This document shows positions 45,186 to 48,882 of a DNA stretch of 48,882 bases, in pieces. Position numbers and translations under genes: made by a program. The stretch is from Clostridia bacterium (GTDB lineage Bacteria; Bacillota; Clostridia; Christensenellales; Aristaeellaceae). The stretch lies in the NCBI GenBank assembly GCA_017938695.1, contig JAGBBA010000061.1, positions 1 through 48,882 of the forward strand. The letters are read 5' to 3'. Under the pieces are notes generated by a model that was not told where the DNA came from, made no database searches, and saw nothing but the letters and a program-made list of their open reading frames with translations. The first letter of the stretch is position 1. Each line of letters begins with the position of its first letter.

Positions 45186-46070
45186 ATGCTGTTTGAAAAT
45201 AAAATCTGGGTAGGTACCGGCTCCGCGCCTGTGTATCTGCTGCCCCAGATGGCGAACCGCCACGGCCTGATCGCCGGTGCCACCGGCACGGGCAAGACGG
45301 TTTCCCTGAAGGTGCTGGCCGAGGGCTTCTCCGCCATGGGCGTGCCGGTGTTCCTTTCCGATATCAAGGGCGACCTGAGCGGCGTGGTCCGTCCCGGCGA
45401 GCATAGCGATGCCCTGGCTGAACGCCTGGCTCATTGCGGCGTGTCCAGCTTCCAGTACCAGGCTTTCCCCACCGTGTTCTGGGATGTGTACGGCGAGCAG
45501 GGCCATCCTGTCCGCGCCACGGTGAGCGAAATGGGCCCCCTGCTGCTTTCCCGCATGCTGGGCCTGAACGATACCCAGACCGGCGTGATGAACATCCTCT
45601 TCCGGGTGGCTGACGACGAGGGTATGCTCCTGCTGGACATCAAGGATCTGAAGGCTATGCTGGCCTACCTGGGCGAGAACGCCCGCAACTATACCCTGGA
45701 GTACGGCAATGTGTCCGTGGCCACCATCGGTGCTATTCAGCGCGCCGTGGCCGTGCTGGAGGATCAGGGCGGCGACCAGTTCTTCGGCGAGCCTGCGCTG
45801 AACATTGCCGACTGGATGCAGCTGGACGAGGAAGGCAAGGGCGTGATCAACATCCTGGCCGCCGACAAGCTGTTCCGCAACCCCACGATGTACTCCACCT
45901 TCCTTCTGTGGATGCTGTCCGAACTGTACGAGCTGCTGCCTGAGCAGGGCGATTCCGACAAGCCCCGCATGGTGTTCTTCTTTGACGAGGCGCATCTTTT
46001 GTTCAACAACTGCCCCAAGTCCCTGCTGGAGAAGATCGAGCAGCCATTAATCAGAAATGGTTTATACTGA
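45186..46070 (+). pseudogene. HerA/DUF853-type ATPase, truncated at the foreign junction
   Basis: This is the first 286 codons of a HerA-type helicase/DUF853 ATPase, which normally has about 480-520 residues and acts on DNA as a hexamer. Walker A is LIAGATGTGKTVSLKVL and Walker B is MVFFFDEAHLLF. After KIEQ (to about 46042) the expected continuation (VVRLIRSKGV-like) is absent and the frame reads eight foreign residues to TGA. GGGAGG precedes ATG 45186. The break coincides with the drop from GC-rich to AT-rich sequence, so the gene may be intact in the real genome and cut only by a chimeric join. Confidence 0.88.
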
Positions 46071-46082
46071 GCTATCGTGTTA
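46043..46082 (-). ncRNA. Group I intron D, 5' end only
   Basis: Begins after exon TGGGT at 46083 and shares the TGGGT border, a GCTCA block and a 15-base block (46043-46057) with the start of intron B (47465 downwards). It is cut off at the junction with herA-like sequence, so no core remains. Confidence 0.55.
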
Positions 46083-48080
46083 ACCCAGTGTTATCTAGGG
46101 ACAGTTGAGAATCTAAATCGTAGAATGAATACCACCAAATATCGTCGCCATACATGTTTATGATAGTGTTTTTCACATTGTTACCCTAAAGGCTTTTTAT
46201 CCTTTAGTTCTTATAATTTCTTATAAGGTCAGCATATATTTTCACCTTCAGCATTATCTGTTTAGGTGTCGAACACTCGTGGGAGAATTATATTCTTTTT
46301 AAAAGTTTCATCTCCTATGCGTTACGGTGTTTAAAGTTTTTTAATCCTTTAAATTACCTCGGTATTAACATATAAATTATTTTTATAGTTTTTAAGAAAT
46401 TCCTCAAATTGTTCAAGTGTATTATTTCCTTTTCCATATATTGAATGAAATAAATTGTGAACTTGTTTTGTTAATGTAATTGCGTTATTCATATCTGTTC
46501 TGCCTTCAATATACCAATTATATCCGTTTAAATGATGAACTTGTAAATCGCCGCCAATTTGTCCAGTAATTCTACAAGTGTAATTATCTCTTTCTAACAC
46601 ATTTTTTATAAAATCGTTATATTCTTGATAATTTCTTCCAATTATTCTATCATCATCTGTTAAATTTGGATTATAATTTTTATGGTTTTCTCCGCAAAAA
46701 TAATTATTTCTGCATTGTTCGGAACAAAAATGTTTTTCACTTTTATTAAATCTATAGGGTATCATTGAAGATTCTTTATTACAATAATCACAATTAAAAT
46801 TAATTTTTTTAATTAAACTTTTATCATGGCATTCTTTTGAACAATAGTTTGTTTTTGTTTTTGCTGATCTATTTTTACTAAATATTTTATCACAATAATC
46901 ACATTTTACTTCAATTTTATATCCTCTTGCTTTTTGTTTACATTCTCTACTACAGTAGTGGTGTTCACTTCTATTATACACACTTGGTATTTGATTTGTT
47001 TCTTTATTACAATATTCACAATTGAATGTTATTCTCATTATTATCAACCTCCTATATTTAATATAGGATTTATAATTATGAAAATTAACTAAATATTTAC
47101 TTAGCCTTCACCGATTTTGCTCGATAATTATATTAAATATTTCTATTTAACACGCCAAAATTTTAGCAAAGTTATCTATCATCAATTCTGTTACTTTCAT
47201 CCTTTTTGGGGATTACTGACCACTTTAAGTGGCGGGATAACTACTTCTTTAATCAGTCTTTACTGATGAGTTATCCTCTGTAGTTTCTTTTAAGATTATA
47301 TCTACAGTTCAGACTGTTGCTTATCCATAGAATATGGACCTGTTTCACTCAGTCGTTGCAGGCGATTATTTAATAATAAAATTAATAAATATATCTTCCT
47401 GAGCGTTATCTATCTCTAGACTTTCGCCATTAATCAGAAACAGTTTTACATGAGCAGATTTGTTTACCCATGGTCATAACATGTAAGTAGTATCTACAAG
47501 CTCTATCAACATTAAAATATTGTGGAGCTCTTCTTCTAAATTCTTCTTTATCTGTAGTATCGCTAACAAATTGTACATATCTTGCTAATGCTAATATTGC
47601 ATAATCATAGAATCCACCGGTTACTGGTCCATTATGATAAATTCCTAATTCATCATAATATCTAGTAACATCATATTCACCGGTATTTGCTTCGAATGCA
47701 TCTTCATCATAAACAATTTCAAAGTCAGCATTTATATTATTATAAATCCAAGCTATATCTTCTTCAACCGAAGCTGGAGTTCCTTTTACCTGCCATCTCT
47801 TAAAGAAAGCACCTTCAGATGAGTCAGTGTTTGCTTTAATTTCCCATCTTACTGAATTTGGAATCGTTTCTAATCCTAAAGTTTTAAAACAAGATTTATC
47901 ATGATTAAAGTTTCCTAAACCAATCCATTTACCATTAATAACTATTTGGCAAGGAACACCGTTAATAGCTTCTCTTGTTTTAGGATCTACTTTTCTAGCT
48001 GGACATTCATTTCCTTTAAATAGAACGTCTGTTGTAAATCTAGCAGTACCAGTATTTCTACAGTGAGATGAATCCATATA
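46083..48080 (-). CDS. Phage-type structural gene in three exons (5' and 3' parts missing)
   Basis: The exons (- strand) are E1 48080-47466 (205 codons), E2 47182-47150 (11 codons) and E3 46173-46083 (30 codons plus one base). Spliced, they read without stop through RYYLHVMTMG, MIDNFAKILAC and KNTIINMYGDDIWWYSFYDL. The last part, YDLDSQLSLDNTG, resembles the YDxDxxxGxxNxG region I associate with phage tail or collar proteins and, more loosely, CotH-like folds. The exact product is not known. Exon borders are set by open frame, exon T at each 5' site and intron G at each 3' site; they need RNA proof. The gene starts and ends outside the visible part. Confidence 0.6.
46174..47149 (-). ncRNA. 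Group I intron C with HNH endonuclease gene
   Basis: A 976-nt insert between exons E2 and E3. Its end GTAACAATGTG resembles the ends of introns A and B. A possible P7 pairs GGTGTC (46265-46270, + strand) with CACC (46243-46246). The core is less clear than in B, so the class is tentative; the split frame and resident homing endonuclease support it. Confidence 0.6.
46349..47038 (-). CDS. HNH homing endonuclease with zinc fingers
   Basis: This 229-residue protein has three treble-clef-like zinc modules (CEYCNKE...YCSREC, CDYCDKI...YCSKEC, CDYCNKE...FCSEQC) in the first 115 residues. An HNH nuclease core follows: YTCRITGQIGGDLQVHHLNG, then NNAITLTKQVHNLFHSIYG. It would cut an intronless allele and so spread intron C. 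ATG 47038 has GGAGG 9 bases upstream. Its very low GC and lysine/asparagine-rich code differ from the herA-side genes. Confidence 0.88.
   Translation of the reverse strand: MRITFNCEYCNKETNQIPSVYNRSEHHYCSRECKQKARGYKIEVKCDYCDKIFSKNRSAKTKTNYCSKECHDKSLIKKINFNCDYCNKESSMIPYRFNKSEKHFCSEQCRNNYFCGENHKNYNPNLTDDDRIIGRNYQEYNDFIKNVLERDNYTCRITGQIGGDLQVHHLNGYNWYIEGRTDMNNAITLTKQVHNLFHSIYGKGNNTLEQFEEFLKNYKNNLYVNTEVI
47183..47465 (-). ncRNA. Group I intron B (no ORF)
   Basis: A 283-nt insert between E1 and E2. R-like CAACGACTGAG and S-like CAGTCTGAAC give P7 as GACTG (+ strand CAGTC, 47350-47354) with CAGTC (+ strand GACTG, 47312-47316). It ends GAAAGTAACAGAATTG. Size and elements fit a minimal phage group I intron. 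Confidence 0.75.
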
Positions 48081-48882
48081 CATTCTGTTACTTTCGTCTA
48101 TGGCTAGACTACTGACTATGTTACCACATAGCGAGAAAGGTTCTTCTTTAAAGTGTCTTTACACTTGACCTTTCTTCTACACTTTATTTTTATAGGAATT
48201 ATATGTGTAGTTCAGACTATTACATACTTATTAAATATCAATTACTTAATAAGCCTCTCTTGTTTAGTCGTTGTTGGTGAAATTTTCCACGAATGACCAA
48301 GTTAAATTGATTTTATTTCCATCTTTTTCTATTGTTCCACAATATTTACGATAACCTTTGCAAACTAAAGATATATTTCCTCTGGATTTTATTAATAATC
48401 CAAAATTATTATATAGATATTCAACGGCTAATCTAGCATTATCAAAAGTTATATTTAATTCATTACAATGAACTTTTACCCATCTATCTTTTTGGCTCTC
48501 ACTCATTTTATTTTTTGTTTCTTTTGATCTTTTTAAACCAAAATTAGGATTATTTTCACCTTTAAATTTTTCACTCATCATTCTTTTCGTTTCTTCGGAA
48601 TGTTTAGAACCTTTTCTAACACCAGGTTTACCTTTTTTAGCTTTACTCATTTTTTCTCGACTTTCTTCTGTCATTTTTACACCCTTCATTGCTGATGGCA
48701 ATCCTAAATGAGATTGTTTTAATTTTTTAATAGTTTCTTCTGAAGCTTTTCTACCAAGTTGACCTTCACCACCAAGAGTAGAATTATACCCATTGTTATA
48801 TGAATCATATTTTTCAATATAATACATTTCTAATTTATTTAATTCATCTATATTTTCTATATTTTCTTCTAATATAGTTAAC
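48081..48882 (-). ncRNA. Group I intron A with GIY-YIG endonuclease gene (5' part outside window)
   Basis: R-like CAACGACTAAAC and S-like TAGTCTGAACT give P7 as GACTA (48269-48265) with TAGTC (48219-48215), a compensatory change relative to intron B. It ends GAAAGTAACAGAATG before exon E1. Confidence 0.72.
48264..48882 (-). CDS. GIY-YIG homing endonuclease, 5'-partial
   Basis: The frame is open to the window edge. The visible 205 residues begin in the end of the GIY-YIG domain (LNKLEMYYIEKYDSYNNGYN, then TLGGEG), followed by several NUMOD3-type DNA-binding repeats (SEETIKKLKQSHLG, TEESREKMSKAKKGK, SEETKRMMSEKFKG, SKETKNKMSESQKDR) and a C-terminal helix-turn-helix-like part. Its stop TAA overlaps the R/P7 strand of intron A, so coding and ribozyme sequence share bases. 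Confidence 0.85.
   Translation of the reverse strand, partial: LTILEENIENIDELNKLEMYYIEKYDSYNNGYNSTLGGEGQLGRKASEETIKKLKQSHLGLPSAMKGVKMTEESREKMSKAKKGKPGVRKGSKHSEETKRMMSEKFKGENNPNFGLKRSKETKNKMSESQKDRWVKVHCNELNITFDNARLAVEYLYNNFGLLIKSRGNISLVCKGYRKYCGTIEKDGNKINLTWSFVENFTNND

What the first reader, a model, noticed from the sequence alone, without database searches (positions are those of the whole stretch)
46043..48882. One phage gene interrupted by at least four group I introns in 2.8 kb
The coding frame E1-E2-E3 continues only if inserts A (over 800 nt, GIY-YIG), B (283 nt) and C (976 nt, HNH) are removed; a fourth, D, begins after E3. Introns A, B and C end in a related GTAACA block with final G, and the introns with a visible 5' end (B, C, D) follow an exon T. 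Such intron density in one structural gene is rare and suggests repeated homing into a conserved target.
Basis: partly seen in the sequence, partly recalled or inferred. Interest (0 to 1): 0.9.

Follow-up and report, generated by a model that had tools for sequence, protein, structure and literature searches.

The report
Four group I introns, one phage gene
The end of this bacterial contig carries a stray piece of phage DNA in which one virion-protein gene is cut by four self-splicing-type introns of two families, two of them only 18 bases apart; intron-riddled phage genes are already known, but genes of this kind are hit by related introns in several phages.

Summary
On the minus strand E1 (48080-47466), E2 (47182-47165, 18 nt) and E3 (46173-46083) align contiguously, to the base, with one uninterrupted 2551-aa frame in a viral contig (L023, IMG/VR 3300013426_000022) and collinearly with intronless Bacillus phage G gp353. 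The inserts are group I introns: A (3' part; 5' end off the contig; GIY-YIG/NUMOD3), B (283 nt, no ORF), C (991 nt, HNH), D (39-40 nt visible). B and C show the P3/P7 core, with covariation among relatives. A, B, D form one lineage; C another, known from Clostridioides, Staphylococcus and Bacillus phages. A covariance model from relatives alone finds C (E 2.4e-26). Rfam finds neither these nor the relatives tested. Corrections: C is 991, not 976 nt; the gene is CotH-like; phage DNA joins a bacterial herA-like gene at 46043/46044, probably a chimera. Two contigs with identical cores carry A at the same site, and 9 of 20 loci with A/B-lineage introns are CotH-like genes. Splicing is not shown. 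Multi-intron phage genes are published, so: new member of a known kind.

The parts
48081..48882 (-). Intron A, 3' part of a group I intron (5' end beyond the contig end); P7-P9 region, ends ...GTAACAGAATG
   Evidence: boundary from intronless L023 and the same ...AGAATG|TTTATGG end in L044/L048; 3' core matches Microcystis phage MaeS L017 and crAssphage dUTPase intron L025; nearest core L044/L048
48264..48882 (-). GIY-YIG-type homing endonuclease ORF of intron A with NUMOD3 motifs; its N-terminal part is cut off by the contig end
   Evidence: Pfam NUMOD3 1.4e-19; PHROG homing endonuclease 7e-20; 44% to the ORF of the L044 intron
47466..48080 (-). Exon E1 (615 nt) of a CotH-like virion-protein gene
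   Evidence: tblastn to L023 60%, E 4e-81; phage G gp353 28.8%, E 6e-13
47183..47465 (-). Intron B, 283 nt, no ORF of 60 aa or more; P1 CAUGGGU/GCUCAUG with U.G, P3 CUGUUUC/GAAACAG, P4-P8
   Evidence: boundaries; helices
47165..47182 (-). Exon E2, 18 nt, MIDNFA
   Evidence: identical peptide at L023 9592-9609, contiguous with E1 and E3
46174..47164 (-). Intron C, 991 nt, group I with a P7.1-type stem between P7 and P3; second lineage
   Evidence: DNA match to introns of Clostridioides, Staphylococcus and Bacillus phages; P3 covariation; CM hit 146.9 bits, E 2.4e-26 at 46322-46182
46349..47038 (-). HNH homing endonuclease ORF in intron C (ATG after AGGAGG; the longer TTG start is at 47047)
   Evidence: PHROG HNH endonuclease 3e-24; 35% identical to the HNH ORF of the Staphylococcus phage 6ec intron
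46083..46173 (-). Exon E3, 91 nt: 30 codons KNTIINMYGDDIWWYSFYDLDSQLSLDNTG plus 1 nt
   Evidence: 70% to L023 9610-9699, E 1e-13
46044..46082 (-). Intron D, first 39 nt only (46043 fits both sides): P1 ACUGGGU/GCUCAGU with U.G, P3 5' strand, start of the CTGATTAATGGC block
45186..46043 (+). Bacterial HerA-like ATPase gene, cut at the join with phage DNA
   Evidence: Pfam HerA_C 6.6e-138; match ends at 46043 in all 5 congeners compared

Best explanation
A fragment of a tailed-phage genome, related to the phage behind L023 and more distantly to Bacillus phage G, sits at the end of this bacterial contig. It carries part of one large CotH-like virion-protein gene interrupted by four group I introns. 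Shown: the exon frame, the boundaries, the intron lineages, and the conserved core of B and C. Inferred: each intron folds in the transcript, binds guanosine in P7, cuts after the exon U that is paired in P1 and joins the exons, so that the virion protein is made; the introns spread at DNA level by homing, A through its GIY-YIG and C through its HNH endonuclease; B and D, without a visible endonuclease, belong to A's lineage and have near-identical guides and 5' sites (UGGGU|). The phage-bacterium join is most likely an assembly or library chimera.
For: Contiguous intronless homologue; phage G collinearity. P3 in the C lineage: 66 of 66 positions paired in 11 sequences, 6 distinct helices, against 323 of 552 with partners swapped; P4 paired in 11 of 11, P8 in the 10 of 11 parsed. 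P3 in the A/B lineage: 42 of 42 positions in 6 distinct helices against 142 of 210 swapped. RNAalifold on 11 relatives without the window: 21 of 33 pairs with changes on both sides. A model from relatives alone finds C at 146.9 bits and the crAssphage dUTPase intron, annotated as an intron insertion by its depositors, at 64.7 bits. P1 for B and D: best U.G helix in the same geometry, 10-nt loop. Same-site intron and endonuclease in L044/L048. Join exact against 5 relatives.
Against: No RNA data. Rfam finds no group I intron in the window at gathering score or E up to 10, nor RF00028 in the whole genome, while 4 of 14 control genomes ring; but it also finds nothing in 10 loci with relatives. 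The unconstrained fold of B pairs P3's 5' strand with the 3'-terminal AACAG instead of its P3 partner. P1 scans looked only at U.G starts; shuffled windows reach the score of B's P1 in 21 of 500 and of D's in 8 of 500, so each alone is modest. P1 of C is weak: by hand 3-4 bp in the short hairpin, or 7 of 8 bp with a 58-nt loop. R1 does not match A or B. D is 39-40 nt long.
Confidence: 0.93

Rival explanations
1. The introns are inactive remnants and the gene is a dying pseudogene in an intron-loaded or defective phage.
For: No RNA evidence; intron density is extreme; the fragment sits in a bacterial contig.
Against: The exons keep frame and 60-100% identity to an intact relative over 241 codons with no stop; B keeps the core helices; C scores 146.9 bits against a model of relatives; both endonuclease ORFs are open as far as seen.
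Confidence: 0.05
2. The phage segment is a true integration into the bacterial herA-like gene, not a chimera.
For: The contig was assembled through the join, and by inspection the two sides share only about 1 nt there, so it is not a typical repeat-driven misassembly.
Against: The join falls inside intron D and inside a gene whose match runs on past this point in 10 of 12 congeners searched (the other 2 have no match). Mean G+C falls from 0.59 to 0.28 between neighbouring 1-kb steps. E1 has no second match in the 76 contigs and none in 20 relatives. I did not search for attachment sites or an integrase.
Confidence: 0.1
3. The inserts are other elements: inteins, group II introns or IStrons.
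For: They hold endonuclease ORFs, as inteins and other elements may.
Against: B and C contain stops in the exon frame (sequence; one search shows E1's frame ending in B); no Rfam hit of any group II model; the only ORFs of 60 aa or more in 46044-48882 are E1's, the HNH and the GIY-YIG ORF, none transposase-like; group I helices present.
Confidence: 0.01

Closest known systems
Major capsid protein gene of Zeta-group crAss-like phage cMAG OLRF01000054 (PMC7886860, passages read)
   Same: One structural phage gene in five fragments; [quoted passage not shown]
   Different: Different gene; in the passages read the inserts were found through endonuclease domains, and no ORF-less intron, base-exact boundary or very short exon is mentioned.
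Bastillevirinae polymerase, terminase and ribonucleotide reductase genes (PMC11878797, passages read); Twort orf142 (cited there; PMC22036 not held)
   Different: Mostly replication and packaging genes; no more than three introns per gene in the passages read.
Carjivirus communis (crAssphage) dUTPase intron, BK010471
   Same: Matches part of A's 3' core by BLAST and the C-lineage model R1; HNH ORF inside.
   Different: Another gene; annotated as one insertion.
Introns in tail or tape-measure regions of Clostridioides phages and Staphylococcus phage 6ec, and in a recD-like gene of Bacillus phage PJN02
   Same: Same lineage as C: about 72-80% DNA identity where aligned, same P3, P4 and P8; an HNH ORF in 6ec.
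   Different: Unrelated host genes.

Membership tests
Group I intron | 5' splice site after exon U paired to intron G in P1 | tested here: met
   B and D: 7 bp with terminal U.G (shuffle control 21 and 8 of 500). C: exon U and a G present, helix short. A: 5' end not visible; the same-site L044 intron has 7 bp (0 of 500).
Group I intron | Intron ends in G | tested here: met
   A, B and C, boundaries set by intronless L023; D's 3' end not visible.
Group I intron | P3-P7 pseudoknotted catalytic core with P4, P6 and P8 | tested here: met
   B and C. A: 3' part only, by alignment. D: too short to test.
Group I intron | Match to Rfam RF00028 | tested here: not met
   No hit in window or genome. Ten loci with relatives also give none, so the test has little power here; it is a detection model, not a defining property.
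Group I intron | Self-splicing with guanosine | not testable with these tools
   Needs RNA.
IStron | Group I intron fused to insertion-sequence transposase genes | tested here: not met
   Only HNH and NUMOD3/GIY-YIG ORFs in the inserts; A's 5' part and most of D are not visible.
Group II intron | Match to a group II model in Rfam | tested here: not met
   No hit among 4227 families.
CotH-kinase-like protein (host gene) | Pfam PF08757 above gathering score | tested here: inconclusive
   E1 and the L023 domain: no CotH hit. Homologous phage G segment: 2.5e-15, 57.3 bits, cut-off 23.8; NatCom_3357 segment 22.7 bits, below cut-off; DAC16 segment none.

The most novel reading that the evidence does not exclude
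CotH-like virion-protein genes of phages are a general hot spot where group I introns pile up, here of two lineages, leaving exons of 18 nt (and apparently 14 nt in L052) that hold the guide-pairing part for one intron and the 3' acceptor of another. B and D share guide and 5' site (UGGGU|), so one may have bred the other inside the same gene by reverse splicing rather than by endonuclease homing; and because B and C are both in phase 0, skipping the 18-nt exon stays in frame and would remove the conserved MIDN motif, giving a built-in choice between two forms of the protein.
Probability: 0.12. Interest if true: 0.75.

Novelty: new member of a known kind. Interest (0 to 1): 0.48.

Why it matters
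It is a compact natural case in which introns of two lineages interrupt one gene 18 nt apart, so that each insertion probably lies inside the homing target of the other, and a natural intronless relative fixes the boundaries. It also shows that Rfam's models miss two phage intron lineages in every locus tested here, so Rfam-based intron counts in phages are likely too low and such genes are easily annotated as fragments.

Tried and rejected
Rfam searches: negative, given little weight after the control. E1 alone against viral contigs by exact peptides: nothing; the alignment with phage G found L023 and phage G itself. L023's own protein as query found only itself; E1+L023 found only L023. Genome collection with E1+L023: 116 pattern matches, none a relative. 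HNH ORF against viral contigs: 14 pattern matches, no relative. PHROG 9915 against the whole genome: the window plus three weak places on contig C1 (best 9.6e-5) in another part of the profile; 3 of 14 control genomes ring too; not followed. Nucleotide search with B alone: 97 records, of the 40 listed all but MaeS are 26-31-nt matches in B's A+T-rich part; not used. Solved structures with the phage G CotH segment: none. First P3 expression was out of register by one base for most rows; corrected. P10 of B was looked at by eye, is poor and is not claimed. That all four sites lie in the most conserved stretches was tested and dropped: within 6 residues on either side, A is in the top 0.2% of positions, C top 13%, D top 26%, B top 47%; the mean of the four is reached by 187 of 20000 random quartets, driven by A. 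No model was built for the A/B lineage because its members were found with a pattern taken from A and B. Rows dropped: 14 of 22 sequences gave no P3 test (13 without the 5' motif within 1800 nt, 1 without the R motif), 4 of 22 relatives (L036, L037, L038, L047) for missing motifs, P8 of L020.
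Full report
What is there. The window is contig C41 of a 2.53-Mb genome in 76 contigs. Up to 46043 it is bacterial, G+C mostly about 0.6; the 1-kb steps from 46001 on are 0.28 and 0.31. The last bacterial gene is HerA-like (HerA_C, 6.6e-138). In 10 of 12 congeners searched the same protein matches through residue 286 of my 287-residue query and its open frame runs on (the other 2 have no match); in the 5 compared base by base the match ends at 46043. E1 has no second match in the 76 contigs and none in 20 relatives. I read the join as a chimera; a real integration is not excluded.

The gene. Boundaries come from a natural intronless relative, L023 (IMG/VR 3300013426_000022, 115 kb): one open frame of 2551 aa (6682-14337) holds E1 at 9001-9591 (60%), E2 at 9592-9609 (6 of 6 residues) and E3 at 9610-9699 (70%), with no base between them. 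Phage G gp353 gives the same order: E1 686-871, E2's MIDN 872-875, E3 888-912. A, B and C therefore lie in phase 0, D in phase 1. The four insertion points span 724 nt of coding sequence; B and C are 18 nt apart, C and D 91 nt.

The protein. The phage G segment is a CotH-kinase domain by Pfam (2.5e-15); E1 and the L023 segment do not reach Pfam CotH by themselves. The L023 protein ends in DUF285 and leucine-rich repeats and lies near genes with PHROG matches to a major head protein, a virion protein and a head protease. Relatives in crAss-like phages are annotated 'internalin-like protein ... similar to internalin, receptor-binding protein'. As that could make it a host-range gene I did not write out a spliced frame. 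The insertion points are KA(D/N)|(Y/F)MDSSH (A), FG|MVDN (B), DNxx|KN (C) and GLxNxG| (D) in family terms. Only A's flanks stand out as highly conserved; B's do not.

Lineage A/B/D. A's 3' core and B are 66% identical over 171 nt and both match an intron region of Microcystis phage MaeS; B and D are 75% identical over 52 nt. B folds without constraint into P1, P4, P5, P6, P7 and P8 (z -4.15, 0 of 200 shuffles), although that fold pairs P3's 5' strand with the AACAG near the 3' end. The P3 pseudoknot CUGUUUC/GAAACAG is supported by relatives: in 8 of 22 sequences examined both strands could be located, giving 6 distinct helices, 42 of 42 positions paired against 142 of 210 swapped; the same 8 have U.G-ended P1 helices of 7-10 bp. 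Shuffled windows reach these P1 scores in 0-21 of 500 in the 7 windows tested. D begins with B's P1 geometry (10-nt loop, GCUCA guide) and the CTGATTAATGGC block, which among 54 loci is otherwise only in L044/L048 and in copies of this window.

Lineage C. C's DNA outside its HNH ORF matches introns of Clostridioides phages (up to 80%), Staphylococcus phages and a recD-like gene of a Bacillus phage. P3 pairs in 66 of 66 positions in 11 sequences including C (6 distinct helices; 323 of 552 when swapped); P4 pairs in 11 of 11, P8 in the 10 parsed. RNAalifold on 11 relatives without the window predicts P7, a P7.1-type stem, P8 and two P9 stems; 21 of 33 pairs have changes on both sides. Model R1, from relatives alone, finds C at 146.9 bits (2.4e-26), the annotated crAssphage dUTPase intron at 64.7 and L026 at 27 bits; two further matches have E above 1. 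In the whole genome it has one match at E up to 1, with 150 of 248 first-look candidates scored. It does not find A or B.

Homing and hot spot. A pattern from the A/B core found 20 viral loci, 16 distinct by core. In 9 of 20 loci (6 of 16 distinct) the interrupted gene is CotH-like: L044/L048, L046, L052/L053 and L054 by tblastn, L050 and L042/L045 by reading exon motifs. The other 11 loci (10 distinct) were not classified. L044/L048 have an intron at site A (KAC|FMDSS), a GIY-YIG ORF 44% identical to A's over 206 aligned positions (E 1e-36) and the core closest to A's (78%, same clade, FastTree support 0.955); gp353 686-2056 then aligns to L044 in one piece. L052/L053 have an intron after YDND, and L042/L045 end theirs at the same 3' side (TGLGI). 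L046, L054, and a second intron of L052 lie after GGCAT|, just before an Asn-Asn motif; L050 lies there or one base on. L052 would leave a 14-nt exon between two introns; this is read from P1 and motifs, not from an intronless twin. Homing is thus well supported for A and likely for its kin.

How it most likely works. Shown: frame, boundaries, lineages, cores of B and C, shared site and endonuclease for A. Inferred: guanosine-dependent splicing, DNA homing by the two endonucleases, and possible in-frame skipping of E2. Precedents for a small exon and for exon skipping between phage group I introns are in PMC11878797 (passages).

Known or new. A crAss-like capsid gene with four inserts, three with group I intron domains, is published (PMC7886860, passages); [quoted passage not shown] Among the papers listed in searches (10 of 57; 8 of 30; 10 of 33) I saw none on introns in CotH-like phage genes; this does not prove absence. 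A one-base exon in placozoan mitochondrial cox1 is published (PMC5436844, listing only). I file this as a new member of a known kind, with the 18-nt exon and the CotH hot spot as its points of interest.

Noticed in passing
window 46043/46044: Abrupt join of a bacterial herA-like gene and phage DNA with about 1 nt of overlap; likely a chimera in the deposited genome.
   Followed up: partly
L052/L053 (IMG/VR 3300035501_000578 and 3300043080_000327): Another CotH-like phage gene with two introns of the A/B lineage that seem to leave a 14-nt exon.
   Followed up: partly
L014 1201-1498 and 1731-1996; L020 1089-1272 and 2600-2810: Two C-lineage introns close together in one Clostridioides phage region and in one gut phage contig.
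   Followed up: no
L013-L022: No Rfam family matches any of these ten phage loci even at E 0.5, although they hold relatives of these introns; Rfam-based annotation will miss them.
   Followed up: partly
window 16001-19000: G+C falls to 0.40-0.47 inside the bacterial part, perhaps another foreign segment.
   Followed up: no
L009 3001-4083 (uncultured phage cr52_1): The homologous stretch holds five stop codons under table 11 and opens when TAG is read as Q, as in recoded crAss-like phages.
   Followed up: no
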